From positions 11,098,001 through 11,162,000 of the forward strand of contig NC_091976.1 of assembly GCF_036711975.1 (NCBI RefSeq): a stretch of 64,000 nucleotides of DNA. The letters are read 5' to 3'. Made by a program: the position numbers and the translations under genes. The notes under the pieces were generated by a model. That model made no database searches, was not told the DNA's origin, and worked only from the letters and a program-made list of their open reading frames with translations. Shown here in pieces: positions 23,923 to 47,641 of this stretch (the stretch's first letter is position 1; every line of letters begins with the position of its first letter). Source of the DNA: Onthophagus taurus. Its lineage: Eukaryota > Arthropoda > Insecta > Coleoptera > Scarabaeidae.

Positions 23923-26151
23923 ATGGTTGATAAACTCGCGAAGGCTCTTCTACGTCGAAACATCGAATTAAATCGACTCCTCGAAACATTGGGCTGTGGC
24001 CGCAGCCTCACCACTATAACTGAAGGCGCATTGATTTTTGTCGCATGCGCTGGTGATATAAAAAATACTTACCGAGAGTTTCAATTATTGTATAATCAAG
24101 CTATTGGTTTAATTACCGATGAAGAGTTTGATGAGCATGATCGTATTCGCCAACAGGCAGATACCGCATATTTTTCTATAAAGGCAATTCATCAAAGAAT
24201 TAAAAATTCTCATATTACTAAACATCCACCTACTGCTCTCGAATCTCCAAAGTTGAGCAAAATTATGTTACCAACATTTACTGGCGATTTCAAAGCATGG
24301 TCAAGTTTCTGCGATTTATTCCGCTCCATGGTGCACGAAAATACATCCTTTTCGGATGCTGTTAAATATCAATATTTATTGATGTCATTATCTGGTGAGC
24401 CATTACAACTCATTAAAGGGTTGCCTATGACGAATGACAATTACCCTATTGCGTTTAAGATGCTGAAGATTAGGTATCAAAATAAAAGGCATCTTGCCAC
24501 ACTGTACTACAACGAAATACAGGGCATAACAATAAAACAAGAGGGTTCCGCTAAAGCCTATCGTTCATTAATCGATATATTCACAGAAAATGTGGTAGGC
24601 CTCAAGACTCTCGGATTTCCTGTTGATTCATGGGATTTCTTATTGTTCAATATCCTATTACAAAAGTTAGATACTTCGATTAGAACCAAATTCGAACACA
24701 GGCACAACGATTTGAATTTGTCACTAAGACCAATCTTTGCAAAAACTGTTTAGGCTGTCGACACTCCACCAGTAAATGCATTTCTACGAATGCTTGTCGT
24801 ATCTGTAATAAACGTCACCACACTTTATTACATCTGAATAACCCAATGAATGATGAACAACTATTGGATCTGCGTTAAATTCCATGATGACCGTATTACC
24901 TCCTTTCGCTGAGATGGAGTCCAGGACCGTTTTGGAACCTTTCACAAAGTTCGGGCACTCATTGATTCCTGCAGCATGGTAAACTTTATTACTGAACGCC
25001 TGCAATAGAGACTTCAACTTGAAAGATGTAAAAGTTCTGTCACTATTGAAGGGTTGAACAGCATGAGTTCCAACTGTAATGGAGGTTCTATCGCCTGCGC
25101 TATCAAACCCTGCACCGCTCTTCAACCCATTTTAGAATTTACAGCTATAATTAGCCCTAAAATTTGTTCCAATCAACCCAAAGAACCGATTGAAATATTA
25201 AACTATCCACATCTACGTCATCTTAACATATCTGTCAGTCAATCGTCTCCCGGTCCCGTCAATCTACTCTTGGGAGCTGAACTGGTTCCCTCAATACTCA
25301 CTGGGGCCCGAAAAATTGGTACTCAGAATGAGCTCGCGGCGCTGGAGTCTATTTTCGGATGATTTTCTGATTAGTAAATCTAACAATTCTTCAGCGTCTA
25401 CATCCAATCTCACATTGTTCATCGAACCTACAGTAGATTTTTGTCTTCAACGCTTCTGGGAATTGGATCAGGTGAAGAACACTGTAGCAAAATCACCCGA
25501 GAATGTTTTATGTGAAAAACACTTTAATTCTACGTATCATCGCAACACTGAGGGCCGTTTTGTGCTCGCTTTACCATTCAAATATAAACAACCATGTCTT
25601 GGACAATCATACCAAAAAGCATTTCGTCGATTTCTTTTTCTGGAAAAACGGCTTTTGAAAAACTCAACCATGTACAACGCTTATCAAAATTTCATGGATG
25701 ATTATTATCTTTCGCAACAACACATGTCCCCTGTTCCCAAAGATGACTTCTGCAACCCCAACTCGTCCAAAATACGCGTCATTTTCGACGCATCCGCCAA
25801 GACCACATCAAATAAATCTATAAAAGATCTTCTATTGACCGGGCCTAAATTACAACAAGATTTGGTATCCATTCTAATTACTTTTCGATGTTTTCCCAAC
25901 GTATTTGTCTGCGATATCAAGCAGCTGTACCGCCAAATTCTCGTCGCCTCGCATCACCGTGATTATCAGCGAATCATCTGGAGAAATGCTAATGACGGTG
26001 AAATCAACGAATATAAATTAAATACAGTCACGTATGGTATGTCCGCATCTCCATTCATGGCATTACGCACTCTGCAAGAATTGGCCAATATATACGAGAT
26101 GCAATATCCTGAAGCTGCAAATGTTATCCGGAATTACATGTATTTCGACGA
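23923..26151 (+). pseudogene. BEL/Pao retrotransposon 2: gag, protease and first part of reverse transcriptase
   Basis: Gag (23923-24753) has a DUF1759-type capsid region with LPTFTGDFKAWSSFCDLFRS. Zinc-knuckle cysteines follow in another frame (CKNCLGCRH ... CRICNKRHH, near 24735-24830). A protease remnant with RALIDSCSMVNFI (near 24945) and reverse transcriptase 25316-26151 with VCDIKQLYRQI and TYGMSASPFMAL follow. The frame stops exactly at the FDD catalytic motif because Maverick P is inserted there. The element resumes at 41242. Confidence 0.88.
26146..26151. repeat. Target-site duplication of Maverick P (left copy)
   Basis: GACGAC, repeated at 41236-41241. One copy restores the reading frame through the Asp-Asp pair of the BEL reverse transcriptase, which proves the insertion point. 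Confidence 0.95.
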
Positions 26152-26580
26152 CAGTAGTATATTAATGCCGATTCTGGAGCGGAAGTTGCTCCCTGTGCTC
26201 CCTGCTCCCTGCGCATGCGCAGGAAGTGACGTCACAGCGCGGGAAATTTGGCGGGAAATTTGAAATTCAAAATTCATGTGGCGCCATCTGGTGTTGTGTA
26301 GTTAAACTAAAAAAGGGGTTTACCTGATGAGTGATAGATGGCGCAGCTTAAAATTTACCTGATGATTGATAGATGGCGCAGCTTAAAATTTACCTGATGA
26401 ACGACAGATGGCGCTGTCATATTTTTAAGTTGGACTGGAAATTGCTAACCATCGGGCGATAGATGGCGCTGTTATATTTTTAAAACTTAAATTTACCTGA
26501 TGAGCGATAGATGGCTCTGTTATATGTTTAAAATTTAAATTTACCTGATGGGGGATAGATCATGAAAATTTAAAATCATG
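26152..26580. repeat. Left terminus of Maverick P with tandem subterminal units
   Basis: After AGTAGTATA come GGAGCGGAAGTT, TGCGCATGCGCA (26209-26220), GGAAGTGACGTCA (26221-26233), then five to six units of about 45-65 bp with GATAGATGGCGC...AATTTACCTGATG (26320-26570). The inverse lies at 40810-41235. Confidence 0.85.
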
Positions 26581-26811
26581 AAAAAAAATGTGGTTGGTAG
26601 AAAAATATAAACAACAATTATATGTTAATACATTTATTATTTAATTTTAAAACAAACAAAATTTGGTTGGTAGAAAAATATAAACAGCAATTATATGTTA
26701 GTACATTTATTATTTAATTTTTAAAACAAATTTTATGATACAATTATGGTTTAAGAAATTTATATACATACAGATGAACAGATCAGATCAGGGTCATCGG
26801 TAGGAAATTTT

Positions 26812-27135
26812 TCACGTTTCAGGCTTCTTGATGAAATCCAATAAATATACAGGGCGAGTTTTACCAATGTCTTTTGCACCCTTATAAATTATGCACATTT
26901 TCCTGAGTTCGATGATTTCCTCGTCAGTAACATCTTCAGCGATGCGTCTTGGTAAATAAATTATGACTCCAGCCTCCAACTCAAGTACCACGGACGGCCA
27001 AGAACAGTTTTTAAGACGTTTCGCGCACTTAATTGGATATGGAGTGTCCGGTTGAAGCTCAGAAATTGACTTTTTCGGTAGGAAATTACACTGACCCAAT
27101 TGACTTAGACGAGACATGGTTCGTCCCTTGAACAA
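26812..27135 (-). CDS. Small conserved Maverick protein, 107 aa, left arm
   Basis: Reads MSRLSQLGQC from an internal ATG (27117) or MFKG from 27135. The core is YPIKCAKRL...WPSVVLELEAG, YLPRRIAEDVTDEEI and a final KTRPVYLLDF. The same pattern occurs at 46757-47236 and more loosely at 46140-46448. The alternating strand pattern suggests a small beta-barrel such as an OB fold, and a DNA-binding role in replication would fit its position beside PolB and the terminus; this is inference. The mirror copy differs by one residue (Val here, Phe there). Confidence 0.65.
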   Translation of the reverse strand: MFKGRTMSRLSQLGQCNFLPKKSISELQPDTPYPIKCAKRLKNCSWPSVVLELEAGVIIYLPRRIAEDVTDEEIIELRKMCIIYKGAKDIGKTRPVYLLDFIKKPET

Positions 27136-28340
27136 CTGTTTCGTAGATTAATAATAATGAAACGTAACTTGTTAGCTTGCAAATAGCTGCCAAACTGAAT
27201 AAATTATTAAGAACATGTAATTATATGCTTGAAAAAAAGATTACGGGGAGTGGGGAAATGGGCAATAGAAGTTTCTAGAAGGATGATGTAATTCACACGT
27301 CCAATTGCAAAGAAAAAATTAGAAATAACAGGTGTTATTGTTGTATAAAATGTAAACTCAGCAGTTTTTATTAGCATTAAATTACCACGGTTAAGTAAAG
27401 TCCGATGCATCACGTCGGCAGAGGTGTTCAATTACACCTGTCTCAATTAAAAACCTTAATGTTATGATACTTTTTTACAAATTCAATTATATTGGTAGTC
27501 GAATAAAAATAACAAAAATTATGTACGTGAAAAATACATTTAAGTAAAAGAAGGAAAAGGTTTCGGCGGCTCAGTGGTGGTGTAAATTAACGAAATATAT
27601 AATACAGACTTATTTAATTGAATTTTGCGCGAATTGAACTGATAGCTGTAAGGTGAAATATATAAATACTTTAAAGGCAATAAACCACTGAACCACCGAA
27701 ATCTTTTCAATTTAATATTAAAAAATGATGAAATACATAAAACTTACTTATTTAATTGAATTTATGCGTATTGAATTGAGGGTGAAATACAAACAACAGG
27801 ATGATGTGTGTTTAAGAAGTACATTTATTATTATTTAATTTTTAAGTATACATAACTTTTATTATACAATTACATTTTAAAAAATACATATCCATACATA
27901 TGAACATAAGGGTCATCGGTCGGAAATTTTTTTACGTTTCATAAGTAAAACGTAAATTTTATAAAACAATTAGTTAACATAAGTATGAACAATAGGGTAT
28001 CAGATTACATATCAGATTTCTTGAAAAACAAATTTCTAGAAATAACAGGTGTTATTGCTCCATAAAATGCGAATTAAGCAGTTTTTATTATTAAATCACC
28101 GAGGTTAAGTAGAGTTCATTGCACCTCACCAACACTTGTTTAAATTAAAATAAATATAATTTTTTAAATAAGTTTTTTTAACATTACATTTATTTAATAT
28201 ACTTAATCTATATGAAATTAAACAATCTAAACATAAAAAATATAATGAACCTCCGACATACTAATTACAAAAGGTATTAAAATTGTACAATAAAACTATC
28301 AAACTTAATAATTATATACTTAAAATTACATTAACATTAC
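27136..28340. other. Intergenic region of the left arm
   Basis: Contains the AAGGTTTCGG inverted-repeat cassette (27555-27708) and two related ~100-bp blocks with AATAACAGGTGTTATT and CGGTTAAGTA/GAGGTTAAGTA strings (about 27310-27420 and 28035-28135). A third relative lies in the centre near 32950-33040. A 74-codon hydrophobic ORF (27207-27431, minus) overlaps one block and is weakly supported. Mirror: 39045-40249. Confidence 0.5.
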
Positions 28341-31300
28341 TTAACACGTTATACTATAATGACCCCAAGCTAATGTATTAATTCCATTATCACAAATATA
28401 TCGCTTGGAGTCATTTGGTGAAAGAACCAATTTATTTTGTAATACAGTAAATATACTGTGATTAAAACTTCTAAATAATGTTTGTTTTTTAAATAAAACC
28501 GATTTGGAATTTAGACAATCTAAATAATTTTGAAAAGAGATGTGATGTTTAACAACAGCCTTCTTAACGCCTTTGGATTTTTTGGTAATCCGCCCATCAG
28601 CGACCCTATTAGCATATACCTTTGACCTCAAACCAACAAATTCGACCATTATGCTTCCACAATTCTCATCTTTCATTTTACCTAAAACCGCTTTATTCTG
28701 CAAGGGTATGTCAAACCGATTATCGGGACTGTAGTTAGATGTGTCAAATTTATTTAAATTTAATTTAACATCTCTATATATATCATCAGAATTAATTAAT
28801 ACAGTGAAACTATCGGTGTCCATATAGCACAACCGAACGTCCTCGCCATATTTAGGCTTTAAGAAATCATAATAAAAATCATACATTAACAATTTTGAAA
28901 GTTCTAAAACAGTAAAACCGACGTATAGAGGTTTATCGTAAACGACATGAAGACGATCCATTTGAATTGCCGAAAACGTTTCTGTGAATACTGTAATACT
29001 TTTAAAATTTAATTTTGCTATTAAACTCCGAGCTCCTAAACGAGGTCTACCTGCGGCTTTACCAGTATGCACATCATCCCAACTGGTCACTAATCTTACA
29101 TCGACTCGCTTATCGACGTTTTCCATTGTCTTGCCAAATACGGAATTATTCATCAATTTAAAAAAATCTTTTTCAAACGCATTCTTTGCGAATTGGCGTA
29201 ATTCCGTATTTTTATCGATGTAAGATTTCAACCACGCAGACTGTCTGAACGATAAAACTCTATTAATTTTGCGAACTTTAAGACCGTGAGCAACAGCTTG
29301 TTTCAAATTTCTATAATGGATCACATAATTTTTCTTATCAAATAAATTTGGAATTAATCTCCTTTCACTTTCACATCGATTATTGGGGGCAATTAAATTC
29401 TCAGCTAAAAACGGGAGATCGTTGTGTAAATCATGCAAAGCTGATGGGTATTCAATATCTACGTCTAAAATATATCCAAAATCGGAATTATCGGGTATAT
29501 TATTAAAATCAAATTTTTGCATGTCATTTTCACTCAGCCATTTAAAATTGGAAACGGGCATAAATTGAGACATCGCCCACCCATACAAATTATTAGCGTC
29601 CCAATACATTAAAAAGTTTGACGGTAAATTGGGGTTATAATCATCCATATACTTATTATTGGCTTTAGCGGACCGTAGGGAGCATTGGGAAATGCCTCCA
29701 CGGATGCCTTTCTTAATAAAATGGACTTGATCTATATCCGTCAATAATTCTAATTTAATTTTGGTAAATTTCAACATTGCATCCCAAGAAAGTCCTGGGG
29801 CAGTATAATAATGAGCGGGATCTAAATCGTAGGTTTTGAAGCAAACTTGTCTGAATTTTTCAAATACATCGGCAAGTAAAAGGACATCAGTTTTTAGATA
29901 CAAATCCGAATAATCTTTTAAATTTTGACAATTAAATTTTTCCCACACAGTTTGAGCATGGGAATACTGCTCATCGGTTATATCTTCAAATGATAGTTTG
30001 TTGAAAAAAGCGTTTTTAGGTGGCAATGAAGTTACGTTTAATTTATCGAGTGAATCCATATAACCGTAGGGGAATATTCCTTTCTTGCTCAATAATCTAA
30101 ACTGATCATTGTGTGGAAAGAATTTACGTATATTTATTAAATCAAATTCGTCAAGGTTACCAGCTAAAGAATCTAATGATGAAGCCATAAACCTAAATGA
30201 ATCTACAAATCTTAGTTTAAAAAAGTATTTTCAACACGGTCTCCCTCCACTTGCGCTTTATCGACTAATATCCGTTTACTGAAACTGATGTATTTTTCTT
30301 TATTATTAGGTAATACATCAAGCCCATCTTCATCCGCATCAGCCATTTCTTTAATAAATAAATGACAATCGTAACCGCTAAAATTATGAAAAAATATTGG
30401 AATAAAATTTTGAAGTTGAAAATTTAAATTACAATTTGTATGAGCGGGCCCACGGTACCTACCGCTTATGTGACAATGATCGCGAACCTTAACCTGATGT
30501 GAAGTGAAAGGATTTTGGCAAATAAAACAATTTTCAGCTGAATCGAAATTCCGTTGCTCATCGACCGTTAAAGGTAGCATTGGTTTTACGGTTTTAAAGT
30601 ATTTATTATAAATAAATTTGACATCATCAATTAATTTAGAGATAAAAACTTGAGGTGCATCAGGACCCGTATACGTTTCAAATTTATTGAAATTGGAATC
30701 AATGGTGGAAACGATATAGTACGCGAAACTATACGGTTGATGCATCTCAATTGTTTCCGTGAAAGACTTGGAAGAATGTGGCTCACAATGATCGATCGGT
30801 TTTAAAATCGATTCAAAGTCGGCGTATATGACAAAAGGGGCCATCTGAGTGAATTTATAGTTATTAAACTCTAAAATGTTCTGAGGGGTATATAAGCCGA
30901 AATAATTTGGTTTTGATTTTAAATTTGTGGAGGGTACAACTGTCTTTGTATGATTACAATCATTAATCTGATGTGCAGTTAAATGTTCAGCCGATGAAAA
31001 CCGTGTTAAACATCCATCGCAAAGGTGTATAGAATGTCCGTGGTGTGTAACCTGACTTGATATTAGCCTCGAAAGATTTTTAATTAAAACGAAATGACCT
31101 TTCCCGGATTCATATAAATAAAGTAAATTTATATGAATATCACGTCTTTGTTTGGTAAAATAAATTGGTCCTTCCACCGAATAACCTTTTGATTCCTTAA
31201 CTAATTCATAAACATTAATACTTAAATTATTTAATTTTTCCACTTTAACAATATCTCTTACACTAATGGGAAATGTAATCCCTTGTAAATTAAGCACTTG

Positions 31301-32344
31301 ACTATAATGAGGGTAGCTCGAAGTCCGGTCTTGACTATGATTCGCCGGATGAAGAGCCGCCGTCAAACACCACGCTAGACATGCATCATCTTCATAGTTC
31401 TTAATATTGATGCACGCCTTTTTATTAACGATTTCATGAGGTAAATGAATATACGATGACCCAGGAATAGGCTCAAATTTGTTGAGGTTTAACAGGAGGT
31501 AAGATATTGAGTGGAAAGCCCACCCAGACCCACACTCCTGAAACTCCTCGCTTTGAGTTAAAATATCACGAGTCATCTCATCATAAACCTCATTCAACAT
31601 GGTAGATGAAGTGATAATTTTAAATTTGGTATTAAAATTTTTCTCCGACGTTATGACTTCCTCATTACCATCACCATCAAACCCGGACTTAATAAAATTA
31701 GCTAATAACTCAATCTGAGCTTTTATCGAACCATTCTCATTGAGATGTTGTTCAATCAGTCTATTAACTGTTTCACAACATTTCAATAGATATGACGGTA
31801 TATCATCCTCAGATTGAGCTCCACTAATTTTATAGCAAACTACCCTATTTTTATAGCATGACATCATTTTTGTAACATTCTTATCGATTAATTCGGCATG
31901 CTGTGTTTGAAGATGAGTTTCAAGTGACGTAAGTGACGGTAAAAACTCACCGCAAACCTCGCATGCCTTACCTTTGTTCTTGGTAATTGAATGCGGTGGT
32001 AGTGTTGAGCCTCGACGGCGTTTAGTGGATGGTGGTGATGATGATGATGATGAAGGACCTCCCATCTCTAAATTCGATTGAGTTTCTATAGTTGATGGTG
32101 GCGATGGTGCTTGAGTTGATGGTGGCGGCGGTGCTTGAGTTGATGGTGGTGGCGGTGCTTGACGTTTGGATGTAATTGGTAATCCATGAAATAATCTTTG
32201 ATGTTCATCCAATTTATCTCGCCTCGATAAACATTTTCCACACATCGAACAATCGAATTTGGTTTGACCATGTTTACTTTGTACATGTCTGTCAAGATTA
32301 CGTTTTAACGTAAAAGATGTTTGACAACGCTCGCAAATAAACAT
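28341..32344 (-). pseudogene. polB: Family B DNA polymerase of Maverick P, left arm, split by a -1 shift
   Basis: Frame 32344-30212 (710 aa) carries N-terminal C2H2 fingers (MFICERC; CSMCGKC), a Pro-rich QAPPPPST repeat region, a third finger (CEVCGEFL), the exonuclease motif FVIYADFES and the VRDHCHISGRYRG endonuclease-like insert. Frame 30188-28341 (615 aa) carries DANNLYGWAMSQ, NSVFGKTMEN and MDTDSF. The break is T TTT TTA AAC TAA (slippery-type heptamer at 30224-30218), where loss of one T or a -1 ribosomal shift both explain the change. No other lesion is seen in either part. The right arm has the same break. Confidence 0.85.
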
Positions 32345-32761
32345 TTTCGAGTTTGTAAATTTCGGAAATATACGGAAACACTTGGTATAAAAGTTTGAGA
32401 TAAAATAGGTGAAACTACTACGATGTTATCGCAACCGCGAACGAATGCTATTTGCGTTCCAGTACGCGATGAACATACTCTAATACTCAAATTACATAAA
32501 ATAGATTTGCTCTATCTAGGTCAAGTAAAGTCAAAGTTACACTATGACAATTGGTGTGCAGCTGCAAAAACGTTGAGTAATCAAATTATTGGTGCAAAGG
32601 TCAAGTAAAGTCAAAGTTACACTATGACAATTGCTGTGCAGCTGCAATAACGCTGAGTAATCAAATTATTGGTGTAAAGGAAAAACATATAGATGAATAG
32701 AAATTTGAAACGTTAATTAATATTAAGGATGAAATAAATTAAAAGTTTAAATTTAAAATAA
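32345..32761. promoter_or_regulatory. PolB upstream module of the left arm with tandem duplication
   Basis: A TATA-like TTTTATACC is found 40-50 bp upstream of the PolB ATG on the minus strand. A unit of about 80 bp (GTCAAGTAAAGTCAAAG ... ATTATTGGTG) occurs twice in tandem (about 32520-32600 and 32602-32680). A variant of the proximal part, GTTATC(G/A)CAA(C/T)CGCGAAC, recurs in the centre at about 34205, upstream of the transglutaminase-like gene. Mirror: 34624-35040. Confidence 0.55.
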
Positions 32762-33570
32762 TAGGTTTTATTAACTTAATAATTATTTTCGGTCAACATT
32801 TTAAAAGTTTATCGCAATTAAGTACAGTCGAAGATTTCAGATTGTGACAGCATACTTCAGATGTACTATCCGAACGTTATCGACTAATGCCGAAACACTC
32901 CGATTGGAGTAATCAGCAGTTTAACCTGTTAATATTCAAATTACATAAATTATTATTGTTACATAAAACGCAAATTAAGCGTTTTTTATTAAATCACTGA
33001 GGTTAAGTGAAGTTCAATGCACTGTGGCAATCGGCGCGCAGCTGCAATAACGCTGACTAATAGACTTATTGGTACAATAGGTTATTTGCGAGCGCCCCGC
33101 ACCCCGGAGTAAGGGACCCCCACCTCTACCCCCTCCACCCTATTTTCATATAGTATATCCCATCCGCTCTCTTCCACCCATCGTAGTATGTATTTCTCTT
33201 CTTTTTCCATTCAGCACCTTATCCTTGAACCGTCTCACCCTCCTTATCCCTACATCACCTTCTTCCCCTTCTACCCTATGCTTACGTCAAAGTCCTCCCT
33301 ACAATCAGACCACCCTCACCCCATTATATCTGTTTCAATATAGTATTTGTTAATAAAAAATAAGGCAACACTAAGGTTGCGGTTAAAAAACGTTACAGCA
33401 TCAGTGATCAGCCGGGGGGAGATAAGGTTTAAAATAAAAAATTAAAGATGTTGCGAAATTATTTATTTATTTAAAAACCATACATTATATAAATTTAATA
33501 AGAAGCATTTATTATTATTACAGTTCAAATATTTTAATTAGCATGTAAATGTGGTAGAGAAGTGTTATAG
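32762..33570. other. Unique centre of the palindrome, left part
   Basis: Non-coding. 33090-33310 is pyrimidine-rich on this strand (many CCCTCC/CTTCCC runs). A GAGGTTAAGTGAAGTTCAATGC copy of the arm repeat is near 32998. Confidence 0.5.
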
Positions 33571-34053
33571 TTAACTTTTAAACAACAACAAATTATTTAC
33601 TCTACGATTTATCGATTTACGTATCCGCAACATATTTTCTGGAGCTTCTTTAAAATAATCCGTGGATGAATGTGTTTGTATATATTTCTTATACCATGTT
33701 TTCATCTGTAGTTGTTGTTCATCGATAGGACTAACATCAAATTCTTCATAGGTGAAGTCGGTTTCATTAACACCACAATAATTGTTCATTACTTTACATG
33801 TAGGATCATAACATTCATTCTCCACTTTTACCCAGAAATGCATTATGGGTATGTGTAGCTCCTTATGTTTCACGTAACCAAACAACATTTCCAGCTGATA
33901 CCCCAATTTTCTTGCTTCATCACAAAACATTAAGGATGTTGGTAGACAGGCTCCAAAATAATGTTGCCTTATCAATTCTTGGGAAATTATATTGCTTAAT
34001 AAAGAGAGTTTAATTCGATCTGTACCTGTTAACACCATGATGAGATGCGTCAA
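33571..34053 (-). CDS. Putative transglutaminase-like cysteine protein, 160 aa
   Basis: An open frame from ATG 34053. The pattern GACLPTSLMFCDEARKLGY, then MHFWVKVENECYDPT has Cys, His and Asp in the order and spacing of the transglutaminase/papain-like fold (C...H-x-W-V...D-P-T). This suggests a cysteine peptidase or amide-modifying enzyme. Its C-terminus is basic (RKSINRRVNN). It is the only gene in the unique centre of Maverick P and has the same upstream module as PolB. I know of no Polinton gene like this. The fold call rests on motif spacing alone. Confidence 0.5.
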   Translation of the reverse strand: MTHLIMVLTGTDRIKLSLLSNIISQELIRQHYFGACLPTSLMFCDEARKLGYQLEMLFGYVKHKELHIPIMHFWVKVENECYDPTCKVMNNYCGVNETDFTYEEFDVSPIDEQQLQMKTWYKKYIQTHSSTDYFKEAPENMLRIRKSINRRVNNLLLFKS

Positions 34054-34357
34054 TGTCCCCAGGGTAGAGTATCAACTGCCCCCGGAATAATATATTTTTT
34101 ATAGAGATAAAAACTCAAACCAAACTATTTCAAATTTTAGTTATATAAAAATGTGAAAACACTTAATATAAAAAAGTTTCTAGATATAATAGTTAAAACT
34201 ATGGTGTTATCACAATCGCGAACCTATGTTATTTGCGTTTCAGTATGTGATGAACATGCTTTAATATTCAAATATATAAATTATTATGGAGGGGTTGGAG
34301 GGGATCCCTCTCTCCACCCTCTCCTCACTATTCTCATGAATGAATGCAAAATTTATG
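34054..34357. promoter_or_regulatory. Upstream module shared with PolB
   Basis: 34140-34290 repeats the arrangement seen upstream of PolB: AACACTTAATATAAAA, then GTTATCACAATCGCGAAC, TTATTTGCGTTTCAGTA and GATGAACATGC. It is the probable promoter of the minus-strand gene ending its upstream side at 34053. Confidence 0.5.
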
Positions 34358-34618
34358 GTTGAACAGGCCTGTTCAACCCCGGTTCAACCCCTGTTCAACC
34401 GCTGTTCAACCCCCCATCCACAAAAATTAATAAACCAAAATATTCTAATCAACTTTGTAACAACGTTAATAAAGTCTTTCCCATCAGCATAATAACTGGT
34501 TGAACAGGGGTTGAACAGCGGTTGAACAGGGGTTGAACCGGGGTTGAACAAGCCTGTTCAACCGGTTGAATACCGGTTCAACCCCGGTTCAACCCCTGTT
34601 CAACCGCTGTTCAGTTCG
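34358..34618. repeat. Alternating GTTCAACCCC arrays beside the palindrome junction
   Basis: Units of 10-12 bp (GTTCAACCCCTG, GTTCAACCGCTG) run forward at 34370-34415, reversed at 34498-34550 and forward again at 34553-34615, just before the arm boundary at 34624. The blocks can pair as hairpins. Confidence 0.75.
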
Positions 34619-34623
34619 GTTCC

Positions 34624-35040
34624 TTATTTTAAATTTAAACTTTTAATTTATTTCATCCTTAATATTAATTAACGTTTCAAATTTCTATTCATCTATATGT
34701 TTTTCCTTTACACCAATAATTTGATTACTCAGCGTTATTGCAGCTGCACAGCAATTGTCATAGTGTAACTTTGACTTTACTTGACCTTTGCACCAATAAT
34801 TTGATTACTCAACGTTTTTGCAGCTGCACACCAATTGTCATAGTGTAACTTTGACTTTACTTGACCTAGATAGAGCAAATCTATTTTATGTAATTTGAGT
34901 ATTAGAGTATGTTCATCGCGTACTGGAACGCAAATAGCATTCGTTCGCGGTTGCGATAACATCGTAGTAGTTTCACCTATTTTATCTCAAACTTTTATAC
35001 CAAGTGTTTCCGTATATTTCCGAAATTTACAAACTCGAAA
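34624..35040. promoter_or_regulatory. PolB upstream module of the right arm
   Basis: Exact mirror of 32345-32761, including the tandem ~80-bp unit and the TTTTATACC box near 34995. Confidence 0.55.
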
Positions 35041-38000
35041 ATGTTTATTTGCGAGCGTTGTCAAACATCTTTTACGTTAAAACGTAATCTTGACAGACAT
35101 GTACAAAGTAAACATGGTCAAACCAAATTCGATTGTTCGATGTGTGGAAAATGTTTATCGAGGCGAGATAAATTGGATGAACATCAAAGATTATTTCATG
35201 GATTACCAATTACATCCAAACGTCAAGCACCGCCACCACCATCAACTCAAGCACCGCCGCCACCATCAACTCAAGCACCATCGCCACCATCAACTATAGA
35301 AACTCAATCGAATTTAGAGATGGGAGGTCCTTCATCATCATCATCATCACCACCATCCACTAAACGCCGTCGAGGCTCAACACTACCACCGCATTCAATT
35401 ACCAAGAACAAAGGTAAGGCATGCGAGGTTTGCGGTGAGTTTTTACCGTCACTTACGTCACTTGAAACTCATCTTCAAACACAGCATGCCGAATTAATCG
35501 ATAAGAATGTTACAAAAATGATGTCATGCTATAAAAATAGGGTAGTTTGCTATAAAATTAGTGGAGCTCAATCTGAGGATGATATACCGTCATATCTATT
35601 GAAATGTTGTGAAACAGTTAATAGACTGATTGAACAACATCTCAATGAGAATGGTTCGATAAAAGCTCAGATTGAGTTATTAGCTAATTTTATTAAGTCC
35701 GGGTTTGATGGTGATGGTAATGAGGAAGTCATAACGTCGGAGAAAAATTTTAATACCAAATTTAAAATTATCACTTCATCTACCATGTTGAATGAGGTTT
35801 ATGATGAGATGACTCGTGATATTTTAACTCAAAGCGAGGAGTTTCAGGAGTGTGGGTCTGGGTGGGCTTTCCACTCAATATCTTACCTCCTGTTAAACCT
35901 CAACAAATTTGAGCCTATTCCTGGGTCATCGTATATTCATTTACCTCATGAAATCGTTAATAAAAAGGCGTGCATCAATATTAAGAACTATGAAGATGAT
36001 GCATGTCTAGCGTGGTGTTTGACGGCGGCTCTTCATCCGGCGAATCATAGTCAAGACCGGACTTCGAGCTACCCTCATTATAGTCAAGTGCTTAATTTAC
36101 AAGGGATTACATTTCCCATTAGTGTAAGAGATATTGTTAAAGTGGAAAAATTAAATAATTTAAGTATTAATGTTTATGAATTAGTTAAGGAATCAAAAGG
36201 TTATTCGGTGGAAGGACCAATTTATTTTACCAAACAAAGACGTGATATTCATATAAATTTACTTTATTTATATGAATCCGGGAAAGGTCATTTCGTTTTA
36301 ATTAAAAATCTTTCGAGGCTAATATCAAGTCAGGTTACACACCACGGACATTCTATACACCTTTGCGATGGATGTTTAACACGGTTTTCATCGGCTGAAC
36401 ATTTAACTGCACATCAGATTAATGATTGTAATCATACAAAGACAGTTGTACCCTCCACAAATTTAAAATCAAAACCAAATTATTTCGGCTTATATACCCC
36501 TCAGAACATTTTAGAGTTTAATAACTATAAATTCACTCAGATGGCCCCTTTTGTCATATACGCCGACTTTGAATCGATTTTAAAACCGATCGATCATTGT
36601 GAGCCACATTCTTCCAAGTCTTTCACGGAAACAATTGAGATGCATCAACCGTATAGTTTCGCGTACTATATCGTTTCCACCATTGATTCCAATTTCAATA
36701 AATTTGAAACGTATACGGGTCCTGATGCACCTCAAGTTTTTATCTCTAAATTAATTGATGATGTCAAATTTATTTATAATAAATACTTTAAAACCGTAAA
36801 ACCAATGCTACCTTTAACGGTCGATGAGCAACGGAATTTCGATTCAGCTGAAAATTGTTTTATTTGCCAAAATCCTTTCACTTCACATCAGGTTAAGGTT
36901 CGCGATCATTGTCACATAAGCGGTAGGTACCGTGGGCCCGCTCATACAAATTGTAATTTAAATTTTCAACTTCAAAATTTTATTCCAATATTTTTTCATA
37001 ATTTTAGCGGTTACGATTGTCATTTATTTATTAAAGAAATGGCTGATGCGGATGAAGATGGGCTTGATGTATTACCTAATAATAAAGAAAAATACATCAG
37101 TTTCAGTAAACGGATATTAGTCGATAAAGCGCAAGTGGAGGGAGACCGTGTTGAAAATACTTTTTTAAACTAAGATTTGTAGATTCATTTAGGTTTATGG
37201 CTTCATCATTAGATTCTTTAGCTGGTAACCTTGACGAATTTGATTTAATAAATATACGTAAATTCTTTCCACACAATGATCAGTTTAGATTATTGAGCAA
37301 GAAAGGAATATTCCCCTACGGTTATATGGATTCACTCGATAAATTAAACGTAACTTCATTGCCACCTAAAAACGCTTTTTTCAACAAACTATCATTTGAA
37401 GATATAACCGATGAGCAGTATTCCCATGCTCAAACTGTGTGGGAAAAATTTAATTGTCAAAATTTAAAAGATTATTCGGATTTGTATCTAAAAACTGATG
37501 TCCTTTTACTTGCCGATGTATTTGAAAAATTCAGACAAGTTTGCTTCAAAACCTACGATTTAGATCCCGCTCATTATTATACTGCCCCAGGACTTTCTTG
37601 GGATGCAATGTTGAAATTTACCAAAATTAAATTAGAATTATTGACGGATATAGATCAAGTCCATTTTATTAAGAAAGGCATCCGTGGAGGCATTTCCCAA
37701 TGCTCCCTACGGTCCGCTAAAGCCAATAATAAGTATATGGATGATTATAACCCCAATTTACCGTCAAACTTTTTAATGTATTGGGACGCTAATAATTTGT
37801 ATGGGTGGGCGATGTCTCAATTTATGCCCGTTTCCAATTTTAAATGGCTGAGTGAAAATGACATGCAAAAATTTGATTTTAATAATATACCCGATAATTC
37901 CGATTTTGGATATATTTTAGACGTAGATATTGAATACCCATCAGCTTTGCATGATTTACACAACGATCTCCCGTTTTTAGCTGAGAATTTAATTGCCCCC

Positions 38001-39044
38001 AATAATCGATGTGAAAGTGAAAGGAGATTAATTCCAAATTTATTTGATAAGAAAAATTATGTGATCCATTATAGAAATTTGAAACAAGCTGTTGCTCACG
38101 GTCTTAAAGTTCGCAAAATTAATAGAGTTTTATCGTTCAGACAGTCTGCGTGGTTGAAATCTTACATCGATAAAAATACGGAATTACGCCAATTCGCAAA
38201 GAATGCGTTTGAAAAAGATTTTTTTAAATTGATGAATAATTCCGTATTTGGCAAGACAATGGAAAACGTCGATAAGCGAGTCGATGTAAGATTAGTGACC
38301 AGTTGGGATGATGTGCATACTGGTAAAGCCGCAGGTAGACCTCGTTTAGGAGCTCGGAGTTTAATAGCAAAATTAAATTTTAAAAGTATTACAGTATTCA
38401 CAGAAACGTTTTCGGCAATTCAAATGGATCGTCTTCATGTCGTTTACGATAAACCTCTATACGTCGGTTTTACTGTTTTAGAACTTTCAAAATTGTTAAT
38501 GTATGATTTTTATTATGATTTCTTAAAGCCTAAATATGGCGAGGACGTTCGGTTGTGCTATATGGACACCGATAGTTTCACTGTATTAATTAATTCTGAT
38601 GATATATATAGAGATGTTAAATTAAATTTAAATAAATTTGACACATCTAACTACAGTCCCGATAATCGGTTTGACATACCCTTGCAGAATAAAGCGGTTT
38701 TAGGTAAAATGAAAGATGAGAATTGTGGAAGCATAATGGTCGAATTTGTTGGTTTGAGGTCAAAGGTATATGCTAATAGGGTCGCTGATGGGCGGATTAC
38801 CAAAAAATCCAAAGGCGTTAAGAAGGCTGTTGTTAAACATCACATCTCTTTTCAAAATTATTTAGATTGTCTAAATTCCAAATCGGTTTTATTTAAAAAA
38901 CAAACATTATTTAGAAGTTTTAATCACAGTATATTTACTGTATTACAAAATAAATTGGTTCTTTCACCAAATGACTCCAAGCGATATATTTGTGATAATG
39001 GAATTAATACATTAGCTTGGGGTCATTATAGTATAACGTGTTAA
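35041..39044 (+). pseudogene. polB: Family B DNA polymerase of Maverick P, right arm, split by a -1 shift
   Basis: Same predicted protein sequence as the left-arm copy over both frames (35041-37173 and 37197-39044). The slippery-type heptamer T TTT TTA is at 37161-37167, with stop TAA at 37171-37173 in the zero frame; the -1 frame continues directly into LRFVDSFRFM. Sharing the break shows that it predates the inverted duplication or has been homogenised. The 3' end faces the right terminus. Confidence 0.85.
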
Positions 39045-39676
39045 GTAATGTTAATGTAATTTTAAGTATATAATTATTAAGTTTGATAGTTTTATTGTAC
39101 AATTTTAATACCTTTTGTAATTAGTATGTCGGAGGTTCATTATATTTTTTATGTTTAGATTGTTTAATTTCATATAGATTAAGTATATTAAATAAATGTA
39201 ATGTTAAAAAAACTTATTTAAAAAATTATATTTATTTTAATTTAAACAAGTGTTGGTGAGGTGCAATGAACTCTACTTAACCTCGGTGATTTAATAATAA
39301 AAACTGCTTAATTCGCATTTTATGGAGCAATAACACCTGTTATTTCTAGAAATTTGTTTTTCAAGAAATCTGATATGTAATCTGATACCCTATTGTTCAT
39401 ACTTATGTTAACTAATTGTTTTATAAAATTTACGTTTTACTTATGAAACGTAAAAAAATTTCCGACCGATGACCCTTATGTTCATATGTATGGATATGTA
39501 TTTTTTAAAATGTAATTGTATAATAAAAGTTATGTATACTTAAAAATTAAATAATAATAAATGTACTTCTTAAACACACATCATCCTGTTGTTTGTATTT
39601 CACCCTCAATTCAATACGCATAAATTCAATTAAATAAGTAAGTTTTATGTATTTCATCATTTTTTAATATTAAATT

Positions 39677-39830
39677 GAAAAGATTTCGGTGGTTCAGTGG
39701 TTTATTGCCTTTAAAGTATTTATATATTTCACCTTACAGCTATCAGTTCAATTCGCGCAAAATTCAATTAAATAAGTCTGTATTATATATTTCGTTAATT
39801 TACACCACCACTGAGCCGCCGAAACCTTTT
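39677..39830. repeat. AAGGTTTCGG inverted-repeat cassette, right arm
   Basis: Mirror of 27555-27708 and relative of 4978-5104. All three lie downstream of a PolB gene in the same orientation relative to it. Confidence 0.55.
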
Positions 39831-40249
39831 CCTTCTTTTACTTAAATGTATTTTTCACGTACATAATTTTTGTTATTTTTATTCGACTACCAATATAATT
39901 GAATTTGTAAAAAAGTATCATAACATTAAGGTTTTTAATTGAGACAGGTGTAATTGAACACCTCTGCCGACGTGATGCATCGGACTTTACTTAACCGTGG
40001 TAATTTAATGCTAATAAAAACTGCTGAGTTTACATTTTATACAACAATAACACCTGTTATTTCTAATTTTTTCTTTGCAATTGGACGTGTGAATTACATC
40101 ATCCTTCTAGAAACTTCTATTGCCCATTTCCCCACTCCCCGTAATCTTTTTTTCAAGCATATAATTACATGTTCTTAATAATTTATTCAGTTTGGCAGCT
40201 ATTTGCAAGCTAACAAGTTACGTTTCATTATTATTAATCTACGAAACAG

Positions 40250-40573
40250 TTGTTCAAGGGACGAACCATGTCTCGTCTAAGTCAATTGGGTCAGTGTAAT
40301 TTCCTACCGAAAAAGTCAATTTCTGAGCTTCAACCGGACACTCCATATCCAATTAAGTGCGCGAAACGTCTTAAAAACTGTTCTTGGCCGTCCGTGGTAC
40401 TTGAGTTGGAGGCTGGATTCATAATTTATTTACCAAGACGCATCGCTGAAGATGTTACTGACGAGGAAATCATCGAACTCAGGAAAATGTGCATAATTTA
40501 TAAGGGTGCAAAAGACATTGGTAAAACTCGCCCTGTATATTTATTGGATTTCATCAAGAAGCCTGAAACGTGA
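40250..40573 (+). CDS. Small conserved Maverick protein, 107 aa, right arm
   Basis: Mirror copy of the 26812-27135 gene with one substitution (LEAGF instead of LEAGV). ATG at 40250 or 40268; the second gives the MSRL start conserved at 47236. Confidence 0.65.
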   Translation: MFKGRTMSRLSQLGQCNFLPKKSISELQPDTPYPIKCAKRLKNCSWPSVVLELEAGFIIYLPRRIAEDVTDEEIIELRKMCIIYKGAKDIGKTRPVYLLDFIKKPET

Positions 40574-40809
40574 AAAATTTCCTACCGATGACCCTGATCT
40601 GATCTGTTCATCTGTATGTATATAAATTCCTTAAACCATAATTGTATCATAAAATTTGTTTTAGAAATTAAATAATAAATGTACTAACATATAATTGCTG
40701 TTTATATTTTTCTACCAACCAAATTTTGTTTGTTTTAAAATTAAATAATAAATGTATTAACATATAATTGTTGTTTATATTTTTCTACCAACCACATTTT
40801 TTTTCATGA

Positions 40810-41235
40810 TTTTAAATTTTCATGATCTATCCCCCATCAGGTAAATTTAAATTTTAAACATATAACAGAGCCATCTATCGCTCATCAGGTAAATTTAAGT
40901 TTTAAAAATATAACAGCGCCATCTATCGCCCGATGGTTAGCAATTTCCAGTCCAACTTAAAAATATGACAGCGCCATCTGTCGTTCATCAGGTAAATTTT
41001 AAGCCGCGTCATCTATCAATCATCAGGTAAATTTTAAGCTGCGCCATCTATCACTCATCAGGTAAACCACCCCTTTTTTAGTTTAACTACACAACACCAG
41101 ATGGCGCCACATGAATTTTGAATTTCAAATTTCCCGCCAAATTTCCCGCGCTGTGACGTCACTTCCTGCGCATGCGCAGGGAGCAGGGAGCACAGGGAGC
41201 AACTTCCGCTCCAGAATCGGCATTAATATACTACT
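40810..41235. repeat. Right terminus of Maverick P
   Basis: Inverse of the left terminus: repeated GCGCCATCTATCG/CATCAGGTAAATTT units, CACCAGATGGCGCCAC, TGACGTCA (41154-41161), ACTTCC, TGCGCATGCGCA (41167-41178) and the end TATACTACT. A handful of substitutions and a 2-3-bp indel distinguish it from the left end. Confidence 0.85.
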
Positions 41236-41241
41236 GACGAC

Positions 41242-42859: not shown

Positions 42860-43720
42860 TTATCCTTCTTCCTTTTCAACGAGGTAAACATTGGGTTGAG
42901 CGGTCCTTTGAAGTTCGAATTCGTAAAAAGCACCTTTAATCGGTTGTCCGCGAATGTCCTCCAATAAATATGAAATTGGATCTGTGATTTTCACTTTAAC
43001 GATTATAAACAATTCGGCGGTCCAGTTGGGTAAATATCCTTTATCAAACACATGTTTATATTTACTGATACGAACTGTATCTCCCACTCTAAACTTTCCT
43101 CTACCGACAATTTTAATATGATGATTAATATGATGATTAATATGATGTACACTGTATCGAGAAGTTTATTCTCTACGGATTTCGAATTTATTTCAGATGG
43201 TTTTATTTTCGTAGTTGAATGTTTTGTACTGTTATATCGAGATGTTATGTCCTTTAATAGGTGGCGCCCGTTTATAATTTCCATATAGACTGAAGAATTT
43301 GTAGATCCTCTGTTTAACGGTTCGAATTACACGTTCAGCCATCGACGCTTTCATAACGCTATACGTTGAAAAATGATTAATTTTAAAATCCGACGTCAAC
43401 CGTTTAAAGTGACTGTTGTAGAACTCTTTGCCCTGATCGGTTTGAAGATTTCGAGGCACGCGACCGTCGGTGAGAATTGAGCGTAGCGCGGCGGTGACGT
43501 CCGTAGAATTTTTACTTTTTAACGGACGCGTCCAGAGAAACTTGGAGAAACAGTCTATAACCACCAATATATATTTATATCCGGAATTCAATATTCCAAA
43601 CTCAATCATTTCAATTAGATCATCGATCCCCTTCAGGATAGTTCTTCGTCTAGCGAAAATACGTCTAGCGGGCCGATGGAGCTCCTCCACAATGACACGT
43701 TTCGCATCTGACACCTCCAT
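42860..43720 (-). pseudogene. Integrase of Maverick D, left copy
   Basis: Frame from ATG 43720 (MEVSDAKRVIVEEL). The DLWQADL region is reduced to GIDDLIEMIEF, an in-frame 15-bp deletion that removes the first catalytic Asp. TDQGKEFYN and SMAERVIRTVK remain. A frameshift follows near 43270 and the C-terminal domain is in 43087-42860. A 3' deletion also alters the end relative to Maverick C. Confidence 0.85.
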
Positions 43721-44048
43721 TGCGACAATTAACGTTTGATACCGCCTTTTTCTCTAATATATCAAGTGTGGAAGATATCGCGGAATGCATGAAGTCAACT
43801 CGCGACTTCATTCATCACCGATAGACGATTTGTAATGCGATTTAGATTTAAAGGTAATCGGTGTTTACCGTTTTAATTTTACCGCATAATCGCGTCTCTT
43901 GAGTTTCTAAGTAGTGTTGTGCGATTGTTATATTTGAGGCTTCTTTTTTGTTTTTTACATTCCCCGCGGGTGCTGGTCAGCGTGGTGTTTGATTTTGTTC
44001 GGTTTTGCGTTCAACATTTTTCGAAGGATTAATATCCTTCGAAAAGTT

Positions 44049-44264
44049 CTATCCAGTCTTAGATGGGTCTAATAAATTCGATATATCTTCGATATTCGAT
44101 TTGTTAAGCTTTACTTGATTTAACAAATTAGTGAATTCCGTTTTAATCGCATCCCCCAACTTTGTTAATCGATCGGAAAGTTGAGTTAACTTGCCAGAGA
44201 CGTCCGAGTAATTTCGATTAATTACATCTGTGAACTTTGTCGTCGTATCAGTCAATTCGTTGGA
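44049..44264 (-). pseudogene. Fibre-like coiled-coil gene of Maverick D, C-proximal part
   Basis: Reads NELTDTTTKFTDVINRNYSD and LTQLSDRLTKLG, matching the middle of the 322-aa protein at 50240-51208. It is cut at about 44265, where opposite-strand ATPase sequence begins. Confidence 0.75.
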
Positions 44265-44622
44265 AATTTTATATTTGACGATGTAGCATGTGATAAACAG
44301 GATAAGATTCAATAATTTTTCTGAATGGGACGACATAATAATATTGATTCGTTCTACCTTACGCAAACCTATCTGCGGATACCTAAACACCTAATACGAA
44401 ACAATGCAAACGTCTTAATTCTATTCAAACAAGATGAGGTTAATTTAAAACATGTGTATGATGAATAAGTTAACACTGACATGAAGGTTGATGTTTTCAA
44501 GGAAGCTTATAAACGGTGTTGGAATGATGATAAATATAACCCTATGATCATTATGAAAGATTTTGAAGTAAAGGATGGAAGGTATCGTATAGGAATGGAT
44601 AAATTTATTTATCCGGACTAAA
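44265..44622 (+). pseudogene. Packaging ATPase of Maverick D, C-terminal fragment
   Basis: Starts at Walker B (IFDDVACDKQDKI), continues MGRHNNIDSFYLTQTY with stops and a frameshift, then NANVLILFKQDEVNLKHVY and GRYRIGMDKFIYPD to the stop at 44622. The Walker A half is missing because the inversion junction falls just before Walker B. Confidence 0.85.
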
Positions 44623-44658
44623 TTATTGCATTGTTATCTCGTATTTGTGTGAGTAAGC

Positions 44659-44967
44659 ATGTCACATAACGATGAAATGACTAAGCGTTCCATACGTGAG
44701 AGAGATAAAGCTATAATTAACATAACAAATACTATTAAGAAAAAATTTAAGCGCTTTAAACTCGGTCGAGAAAACGATGACCGTCTTATCGTTAAACTGC
44801 ATCAGCCATTAAGCGATTCATTAAAAGATATAACTAATAAATTAAGTGAAGTGAAACCTTCTTCTTCTTCTTCTTCTGTACATTACCATCACCACTATCC
44901 ACCTACTGATGATGTCGGTGTTGACTCTTACGGGACATTAAAAAAATTAACGCGGAAATCCTATTAA
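44659..44967 (+). pseudogene. N-terminal part of the p339/p359-type gene (Maverick D)
   Basis: Reads RERDKAIINITNTIKKKFKR and KLHQPLSDSLKDITNKL, matching the N-terminal block at 52237-51962. The C-terminal block and the whole fibre gene are missing before the integrase fragment, so a deletion lies near 44970-45005. Confidence 0.7.
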
Positions 44968-45008
44968 ATGGTCAGCAAATTACAATGATGGAATTTAATG
45001 ATTGATGG

Positions 45009-45116
45009 AATTTAAAATGAATCATTATTCAACGTATAGCATAGTGAAGGCTGCAATAGCTGAACGCGTAATTAGAACCATAAAACAAAAGTTGAATAAA
45101 ATGTTTAGTCTTTACG
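45009..45116 (+). pseudogene. Integrase fragment of Maverick D, right copy
   Basis: Reads NHYSTYSIVKAAIAERVIRT and KMFSLY, the catalytic-Glu region, and stops at the terminus of Maverick C. It is opposite in orientation to the 42860-43720 copy. Confidence 0.85.
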
Positions 45117-46020
45117 AGTAGATAAATAATGAGAGTTCTGGACCGGAAGTTAATCCCCCATCCCCCTAATCCCCCATGACGTCACTTCCGGTGTGATGAC
45201 GTCACTTCCGGTGTCATCCCACTTCCGGTGTCTTGTCACTTCCGGTGTCATCTTCAACCCCATGTTAGTGCCCTAATGGTCCCTTCAACCCCTTCATCCC
45301 CCTATTAGTGCCCTATTGACCCCCTTCAACCCCATGTTAGTGCCCTAATGGCCCCCTTCAACCCCTTCTCCCCCCTCTTAGTGCCCTATTGGCCCCCTTC
45401 AACACCATGTTAGTGTCCTAAAGGTCCCCTTCAACCCCTTCACCCCCCTCTTAGTGCCCTTACCGCCCTAATGGCTCCCTACTACCCCGCTTCAACCCGC
45501 TACGATAGGGGATGATGTTCTAGTGTCCTAATGGCTCCCTGCAACCCACATCAACCCCAAGCATCCCCCTACGATAGGGGACAACGCTCTAGCGCCCTAA
45601 CGGTCGGTTAAATTTTTTTTAATTTATTTTTTTTTTTTTTTCTTGCCAACGCTCAGGATCGAACCCGGGCTGTCTGGTTGAGAGTCGGGCGTCTTGCACG
45701 CTAGGCTACCGAAGGAAATGAGTTAAAAGTGTTTAAATAACGTTCAAGTAGAGATGACGACGGCGCTCATACGTTTATCAGCGGAAGTTAATCCCCCGCG
45801 GAGCGATGACAAATACGACGACGACGACGATGACGTCGACGATCGTATGCTTATCAGCGGAAGTTAATCCCCCGCGGAGCGATGACTTAATTGAAATAAT
45901 ACTTACCTTAAAATAGGTTATTTATTATTATTGATTGATTGATTGATGGTAGGAGGAAAAGACAATCACAAAAAATTAAAGTTAATACATATATTAAAAA
46001 TTTTAATTTAAATTAAACAT
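45117..46020. repeat. Left TIR of Maverick C
   Basis: From the tip: ETS/CRE motifs (TGACGTCACTTCCGG at 45177-45191 and 45197-45211), a GC-rich tandem array (45222-45600) of CCTTCAACCCC...TTAGTGCCCTAATGG units, a tRNA-like segment, then two copies of CGGAAGTTAATCCCCCGCGG separated by a CGACGACGA microsatellite, and TGATTGATTGATTGATGG. The inner half is matched inverted at 63665-64000. Confidence 0.85.
45642..45714 (-). ncRNA. tRNA-Glu-like sequence in the TIR (pseudo-tRNA or SINE head)
   Basis: On the minus strand TAGCCTAGCGTG is a near-perfect pol III A box and GGGTTCGATCC a B box. The anticodon-loop-like CTCTCAA would give CUC (Glu). Acceptor, anticodon and T stems pair poorly, so it is not a sound tRNA. 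An A-rich tail follows on that strand (the T run at about 45610-45641), as in a tRNA-derived SINE. The inverted partner is at 63963-64000, truncated. Confidence 0.5.
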
Positions 46021-46139
46021 GCCCAAAATGATAAAAATATACAGACAGCGCTTGTGGCAACATCGATCAAAGTACAGAGAATTTCGGCGGAGAAAGATAG
46101 TAAACTATTTAAACATTTACCCATTGTGTAGCAGTTTAA

Positions 46140-46448: not shown

Positions 46449-46579
46449 ATCGTAACGCTAGACGTCGACTGAAATATAAAACGGTAGCGATATATAATAT
46501 ATATGGGAGAAGATAAAAATTACATAAGCGCCATCTATATTACAATAGGTCGCACATACATTTCAGATAACGCTCAATG

Positions 46580-46745: not shown

Positions 46746-46756
46746 AACGGATAAGA

Positions 46757-47236: not shown

Positions 47237-47321
47237 GTTATCAGTATGAACGGCTACCTCGGACTACATTGAAATTACAGCAGGGGTAGTAATTACCCTA
47301 AGTTAAAAAGATGCGCGCGCA

Positions 47322-47582: not shown

Positions 47583-47641
47583 TAGTTTTAAATTAAGGAG
47601 TTTAGTATCATTTAACTTGTTTTACGTTAACATATACTACA

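What the first reader, a model, noticed from the sequence alone, without database searches (positions are those of the whole stretch)
26152..41235. A 15-kb Maverick that is a snapback genome: two 6.6-kb inverted PolB arms round a unique 1.9-kb centre
Seen: exact inverse termini, 6-bp duplications, and arms 26152-32761 / 34624-41235 mirrored gene for gene with only a few differences near the tips. It lacks integrase, ATPase, protease and capsid genes. Known: adenoviruses and other protein-primed linear DNAs produce defective genomes with large inverted duplications of one end, made by template switching. Inference: this is a defective, helper-dependent Polinton, replicated by PolB and integrated in trans. 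It is a genomic fossil of a defective viral genome.
Basis: partly seen in the sequence, partly recalled or inferred. Interest (0 to 1): 0.92.

Follow-up and report, generated by a model that had tools for sequence, protein, structure and literature searches.

The report
Mirror-image defective virus-like transposons in beetle
A virus-like transposon in a dung beetle genome consists of one end of its normal genome copied twice as a mirror image, and the same genome holds several more such mirror copies, including a near-identical one at another site, so defective genomes of this kind can themselves be moved.

Summary
The palindrome is real. Window 26153-41235 (15,083 bp) is a Maverick/Polinton with AGTAGT/ACTACT tips and a 6-bp duplication (GACGAC). 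Two 6.6-kb PolB arms differ by 5 substitutions and one 3-bp indel and enclose a 1,862-bp loop. No integrase, ATPase, protease or capsid gene was found in it. Three uninterrupted copies of the host sequence span the site, so the mirror form preceded integration. It is not alone: the same genome (Onthophagus taurus, inferred) holds a near-identical sister at another site (C8), a 97% relative (C4), a palindrome of another family (C15) and an element with a 2.9-kb PolB-end copy (C3). In C15 the loop keeps normal gene order, then switches inside the ATPase gene to inverted mid-PolB: the anatomy expected of a snapback. In family A, arms agree within elements and differ between elements (10 and 142 both-arm changes, 0 arm-specific shared ones), so arms are homogenised. 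Intramolecular snapback and intermolecular joining are not separated. New variant of a known kind.

The parts
26147..26152 (.). left target-site duplication GACGAC, inside a retrotransposon pol reading frame
   Evidence: RVT_1 weak Pfam match, E 0.0014, below its cut-off, in ORF 25316-26263; the name BEL/Pao is recalled; empty site in 3 copies
26153..32761 (+). left arm (6,609 bp), tip AGTAGT
26812..27135 (-). 107-aa reading frame; a homologue lies within the 2-kb TIRs of full-length relatives C1 and C6
28341..30188 (-). PolB C-terminal frame, left arm
   Evidence: several close homologues carry PF03175 or are named DNA-directed DNA polymerase; no PF03175 match of its own
30212..32344 (-). PolB N-terminal frame with C2H2 zinc fingers, left arm, cut from the C-terminal frame by a frameshift
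32762..34623 (.). centre or loop (1,862 bp), mosaic
33571..34053 (-). 160-aa reading frame, possibly transglutaminase- or NAT-like (weak matches below cut-off), open also in the C8 and C4 palindromes
   Evidence: AlphaFold pLDDT 63 and no PDB match at E 0.001
34032..34121 (-). remnant like the PolB C-terminus of another Maverick family (family B), 70% over 30 residues
34624..41235 (-). right arm, inverted copy of the left arm, tip ACTACT
35041..37173 (+). PolB N-terminal frame, right arm, broken as in the left arm
37197..39044 (+). PolB C-terminal frame, right arm
40250..40573 (+). 107-aa reading frame, right arm (one residue differs)
41236..41241 (.). right target-site duplication GACGAC

Best explanation
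The element is an integrated defective Maverick genome with two copies of the PolB end. During protein-primed, strand-displacing replication of a longer genome, a strand that had copied the PolB end switched template and came back along that end; the product has two identical ends, each with a tip and origin, and a unique loop (inferred). The linear palindrome was then integrated with a 6-bp duplication by an integrase from another Maverick (the lack of its own integrase is shown; the supply is inferred). Such palindromes are copied again: one lineage is at two sites with the same loop and junctions (shown). At some stage after the lineages split the two arms of each element were made alike while the loop was kept (pattern shown). 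I think this happens when the displaced single strand folds into a hairpin with a 6.6-kb stem and mismatches are repaired, or when the arms recombine (inferred).
For: Outer duplications only, no internal tip, empty site: palindromic before integration. Sister C8:14204888-14220461, other flanks and duplication, same loop (6 of 1,862 bases differ) and same junctions. C15:5033506-5047851: arms 4,648/4,649 bp; loop in normal gene order (PolB, integrase, 339 aa, ATPase), then a switch inside the ATPase gene to inverted mid-PolB. Family-A arms: 10 window-C8 and 142 window-C4 both-arm changes, 0 sites uniting left arms against right arms. None of the 94 MCP rows lies in the window, C8, C4 or C15 palindromes (93 of 366 candidates scored). 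C1, a full-length relative, has integrase, ATPase and MCP.
Against: The window's own loop is not one collinear piece of a held parent: positions 1-60 and 59-370 continue the arm in different relatives, 583-1341 resembles family B, 1388-1526 resembles sequence upstream of PolB. No clear microhomology at the C4 junction or the C8 duplication. All 6 arm differences lie in the outer 12% of the window arm (about 3.5e-6 if uniform, a boundary chosen after the fact), which hints at gene conversion in the chromosome. Three one-arm states (arm positions 100, 228, 3284) recur in other elements. PolB was the search bait, so PolB-end duplication is favoured; a candidate capsid-end duplication exists. Full-length C1 and C6 have broken PolB. 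Intermolecular joining gives the same anatomy.
Confidence: 0.65

Rival explanations
1. Intermolecular joining or arm replacement: two broken Maverick molecules that both keep the PolB end are joined head to head, or a broken molecule regains an end by copying the other end, as linear Streptomyces chromosomes do. This too happens before integration.
For: Different arm lengths (2.9, 4.6, 5.9, 6.6 kb), no clear microhomology at the C4 junction or the C8 duplication, one base at the C15 junction that I could not place, and a loop with sequence like two Maverick families. Streptomyces arm replacement: passages of PMC5869714.
Against: No direct evidence of two parental molecules; arm identity cannot tell, since arms are homogenised anyway.
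Confidence: 0.28
2. Gene conversion between the arms in the chromosome, not replication, keeps the arms alike.
For: All 6 window arm differences are in the outer 815 of 6,609 bp.
Against: C8 arms differ at 7 sites spread from position 100 to 6233. The widely separated TIRs of single-PolB elements are also nearly identical (C1 0 of 1,901; C6 3 substitutions in about 1,984), though recent insertion alone could explain that.
Confidence: 0.3
3. Two Mavericks inserted head to head or nested, or a chromosomal inverted duplication after insertion.
For: The region is rich in Mavericks.
Against: Duplications only outside, no internal tips, uninterrupted host copies, and the same structure at a second site.
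Confidence: 0.03
4. Assembly or library artefact (for example a missed SMRTbell adapter).
For: Not tested with reads here.
Against: Several loci, different loops, own duplications, arm differences; the 6.6-kb arms are shorter than the reported O. taurus HiFi read N50 of 13.8 kb (PMC10942260, passages), so single reads could anchor flank, arm and loop.
Confidence: 0.02

Closest known systems
AAV snapback genomes (5'-SBG and 3'-SBG)
   Same: Self-complementary genome with one end duplicated, symmetric or asymmetric, from either end, replicating with helper functions (PMC8235507, passages)
   Different: Single-stranded parvovirus with ITRs; found in particles, not as integrated loci
Adenovirus defective DNA with inverted duplication of one end
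   Same: Linear protein-primed genome, one end kept twice (recalled)
   Different: The review seen mentions left-end fragments in incomplete particles only (PMC5033970, passages); the inverted form is from recall. Not integrated
Full-length Maverick/Polinton, such as C1 and C6 here or vertebrate Mavericks
   Same: (AGT)2//(ACT)2 tips, TIRs, 6-bp duplication, PolB (PMC8097293, passages)
   Different: Full-length copies carry integrase, ATPase and MCP; the window element does not, and has 6.6-kb arms where C1 and C6 have 2-kb TIRs
Streptomyces linear-chromosome arm replacement
   Same: Protein-capped linear replicon whose end can be replaced by the other end (PMC5869714, passages)
   Different: Megabase bacterial chromosome, recombination after a double-strand break, not a transposon

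Membership tests
Maverick/Polinton (as an element) | (AGT)2//(ACT)2 tips and TIRs | tested here: met
   motif from PMC8097293 passages
Maverick/Polinton (as an element) | 6-bp target-site duplication | tested here: met
   GACGAC
[quoted passage not shown]
   present twice but split by a frameshift; several homologues carry PF03175, own sequence has no PF03175 match; protein priming not testable here
Autonomous Maverick | integrase | tested here: not met
   none in 26153-41235
Autonomous Maverick | ATPase, protease, minor and major capsid genes | tested here: not met
   none in 26153-41235
Snapback/copy-back defective genome | one genome end duplicated in inverse orientation with a unique loop | tested here: met
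   also C8 and C4 and C15
Snapback/copy-back defective genome | both ends keep the terminal tip | tested here: met
   that the tip works as an origin is recalled, not tested
Snapback/copy-back defective genome | loop collinear with the parent up to the switch point | tested here: inconclusive
   met in C15; the window loop is a mosaic
Snapback/copy-back defective genome | formed before integration | tested here: met
   outer duplications, empty site; the uninterrupted copies are 408 bases against 396-400 of query, place of the indel not examined
Defective interfering genome | reduces helper yield | not testable with these tools
   needs replication assays
Defective interfering genome | helper present | tested here: inconclusive
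   full-length relatives with integrase, ATPase and MCP in the same genome, but C1 and C6 have broken PolB; activity of any element not tested

The most novel reading that the evidence does not exclude
A split Polinton: the C8 palindrome carries PolB (two open frames) as its only recognised core gene, while integrase/capsid elements of family D have no PolB (2 of 2 examined), and one family-D element, C6:27856153-27867890, has at both ends a 247-bp tip 100% identical to the left tip of the C4 palindrome. If the two kinds replicate and package each other, this is a multipartite virus-like transposon whose segments arise by snapback.
Probability: 0.15. Interest if true: 0.92.

Novelty: new variant of a known kind. 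Interest (0 to 1): 0.78.

Why it matters
Mavericks encode capsid proteins but their particles had not been observed when PMC8097293 was written (abstract start). Defective genomes with one end duplicated are what linear virus-like replication leaves behind, so palindromes in more than one Maverick family are indirect evidence for an extrachromosomal, strand-displacing replication phase. They also give a genomic record of defective genomes that can be counted and dated, and a natural test of how long inverted arms are kept identical.

Tried and rejected
Rejected: nested or head-to-head Mavericks and post-insertion duplication (outer duplications, no internal tips, empty site); assembly artefact (several loci; reads not seen). 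Two outward inverted PolB neighbours belong to different families and are not palindromes (C11:11086875/11100778 and C1:22299039/22321189; pairs, identities). Family B: by eye, no inverted pair within 15 kb among the 26 leading rows (88% or more) (40 of 89 candidates scored). Led nowhere: IMG/VR scan with PolB (13 pattern stretches, none confirmed; records of this genome may be left out there); PDB by sequence (none); homologues of the 160-aa frame (14 candidates, none at E 1e-3); its fold (pLDDT 63, 278 matches, none at E 1e-3); phrogs and NCBIfam. Selection: PolB dN/dS 0.175-0.242 in eight deeper pairs, window-C8 0.89 (2 synonymous, 7 nonsynonymous), C1-C6 2.0 (1 and 8); 160-aa frame 0.30-0.36 for C8-C4 and window-C4; too few changes for more than a hint. 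Papers: no title or abstract start that I saw describes a palindromic Maverick (listings: 20 of 44; 20 of 138; 20 of 45; 20 of 25; 3 of 3; 12 of 23; 12 of 39); an open-licence library, so this does not show that none is in print. PMC8097293 and PMC6431247 hold no word beginning with palindrom.
Full report
OBSERVATION. One search finds inverted arms 26317-32761/34624-41068 (6,445 nt) and 26149-26319/41069-41239 (171 nt); fix the element at 26153-41235, 15,083 bp, tips AGTAGT and ACTACT, duplication GACGAC on both sides. Arms differ at 6 places (5 substitutions, one 3-bp indel), all within the outer 815 bp. The element sits in a pol frame of a retrotransposon (weak RVT_1 match; the BEL/Pao name is recalled). 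A 400-base query of the joined flanks gives 13 matches: three run across the join at 93-94% (two over 1-400, one over 5-400), two are the window's own flanks, eight are partial at 70-77%. The three span 408 bases each, and I did not see where the extra bases lie.

WHAT IT CARRIES. Per arm: a 107-aa frame and PolB, split into two frames. Several close homologues carry PF03175 or are named DNA-directed DNA polymerase, though neither half of the window's PolB, nor the open C8 frame, matches PF03175 at E 0.1. No integrase, ATPase, protease or capsid gene was found between 26153 and 41235. Full-length relatives C1:22138470-22154953 (16,484 bp) and C6:27461105-27477630 (16,526 bp) have 2-kb TIRs and 6-bp duplications. 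C1 encodes an integrase (rve plus chromodomain), an A32-like ATPase, a PLA2-like protein, a protease-like protein (adenovirus endoprotease model, E 0.005, below cut-off) and a double-jelly-roll major capsid protein (E 3.6e-60). PolB is broken in both: several frames in C1, a stop between two frames in C6.

ORGANISM. In one search Onthophagus taurus PolB homologues lie on contigs of 21,065,178 bp (P0007) and 7,392,420 bp (P0002, P0004), the lengths of contigs C8 and C15 here. Passages of PMC10942260 describe an O. taurus assembly from PacBio HiFi (86.6x, read N50 13.8 kb) with Omni-C; that this is the same assembly is inferred.

OTHER PALINDROMES. The PolB search scored 71 of 604 candidates (72 rows). 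Seven outward inverted pairs lie within 25 kb; five are of one family each. (1) The window. (2) C8:14204888-14220461 (15,574 bp, GAACCC): same loop (6 of 1,862 differ), same junctions, plus 502 bp made of a flipped piece of the loop end and a repeated piece of arm. (3) C4:2331042-2344160 (13,119 bp, AATGTG): arms about 97% to the window's, loop a subset of the window's, right arm starting at arm position 5921, left arm with a 1.1-kb deletion. (4) C15:5033506-5047851 (14,346 bp, TCAGTG), PolB C-part 74% to the window's in protein: arms 4,648/4,649 bp with 4 substitutions and 3 indels; the loop carries the PolB N-part (55%), integrase, 339-aa gene and part of the ATPase (these three 97-99% to C1's proteins) in normal order, then switches to inverted mid-PolB. 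(5) C3:15742918-15762176 (19,259 bp, CACGTA): arms 2,908 bp with one substitution, integrase and 339-aa genes, an MCP, half PolB at the left end and PolB with a 1,296-aa open frame at the right; about 6.5 kb of its interior was not fetched. This last is better called a PolB-end copy or TIR expansion than a stripped genome. Sizes of the four stripped palindromes (13.1-15.6 kb) are not far below those of full-length relatives (16.5 kb for C1 and C6; 17.0-17.7 kb for four tip pairs of the C15 family); a packaging limit is one inference, and PMC8097293 (section 14, part 1) says vertebrate Mavericks are about 17 kb, varying by about 10%.

HOMOGENISED ARMS. In one search, 10 differences between window and C8 are shared by both arms of an element (9 sites and one 8-bp gap), 13 sites are private to one arm, and 0 unite left arms against right arms. 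One search, window against C4, at positions with a base in all four arms: 142 both-arm sites, 0 left-left against right-right, 3 private to a C4 arm, 5 that differ between the window's own arms. Within elements: 5 of 6,609 (window), 7 of 6,601 (C8), 3 of 4,698 (C4); between window and C8 13-15 of 6,601; window to C4 3.2%; window to C1 2.7%. Three one-arm states (positions 100, 228, 3284) recur in other elements, so recurrent change or exchange is possible. The window's PolB frameshift is in both its arms and in neither arm of C8 or C4, nor in C1. So each element's arms were made alike after the lineages split, with the loop kept; whether this happened before or after integration is open. C8's two PolB frames are open (1,361 aa).

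ORIGIN OF THE PALINDROMES. Window and C8 share loop and junctions, so I take them as one event. C4 and C15 have other junctions; over the arm the window is closer to C1 than to C4 (2.7 against 3.2%), though the outermost 400 bp are closer to C4, so C4 is probably separate, but deletion from a common palindrome is not excluded. At the C15 junction one base is not placed and AAATAT-like sequence stands on both sides. In the window loop, positions 1-60 follow the arm in C1 and C6, 59-370 follow a shortened arm at C8:19.3M and C11:11.56M, 583-1341 resembles another Maverick family including a PolB tail, and 1388-1526 resembles the region upstream of PolB. A parent of the whole loop was not found.

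OTHER CLASS. The MCP search (93 of 366 candidates scored, 94 rows) has one outward same-family inverted pair, C11:9428110/9435303 (the other outward pair is of two families). (40 of 146 scored) shows the p172 end there in both orientations, and one search puts tips at 9422791 and 9439486 (16,696 bp). The distances from tip to this sequence are 4.7 and 3.2 kb, so it is not simply symmetric. None of the 72 PolB rows lies there. I could not fetch it, so this is a candidate capsid-end duplication without a checked target duplication. C22:701019/710200 is a weaker candidate.

SPLIT-GENOME IDEA. Family D elements C6:27856153-27867890 (11,738 bp, GTTATA) and C3:11932741-11944539 (held to about 11944159) carry p172, MCP, mCP, PRO, PLA2, ATPase, 339-aa and integrase homologues but no PolB by tblastn (2 of 2 examined). 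The integrase is 100% identical (rounded) in 8 of 43 rows (40 of 277 candidates scored). The first 247 bp of the C6 TIR, alike at both ends, are 100% identical to the C4 palindrome's left tip, and the rest resembles family D. This shows recombination between the lineages, not complementation; an element with family-D tips at C7:35763946-35772962 has both an MCP and a PolB.

VERDICT. A palindromic Maverick formed before integration is well supported; a snapback origin is the best reading; integration in trans and homogenisation by replication are inferred. Defective genomes with one end doubled are known in AAV (PMC8235507, passages) and, from recall, in adenovirus; integrated and re-copied palindromes of a Maverick are the new variant.

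Noticed in passing
window 45678-64000: A near-complete Maverick with inverted ends 45678-46020/63656-64000 (95%), integrase, ATPase, PLA2, PRO, mCP, MCP, p172 and PolB homologues, the PolB lying at the p172 end instead of beside integrase.
   Followed up: partly
window 681-12801: Another Maverick: PolB, PRO, PLA2, ATPase, 339-aa and integrase homologues; an inverted pair at 5599-6140/7612-8155.
   Followed up: no
window 42872-45115: Fragment with integrase, ATPase and 339-aa pieces right of the palindrome.
   Followed up: no
C6:27856153-27867890 (L038, L039): Maverick without PolB, with terminal tips like the palindrome family.
   Followed up: partly
C11:9422791-9439486 and C22:701019-711065: Candidate capsid-end inverted duplications, seen only by coordinates.
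   Followed up: partly
L010:1493-1994 (C8:14211493-14211994): 177 bp of the loop end in flipped orientation followed by 325 bp of repeated arm in the C8 sister; no clear microhomology; the repeat shares one base with the window, C4 and C1 where both C8 arms differ.
   Followed up: partly
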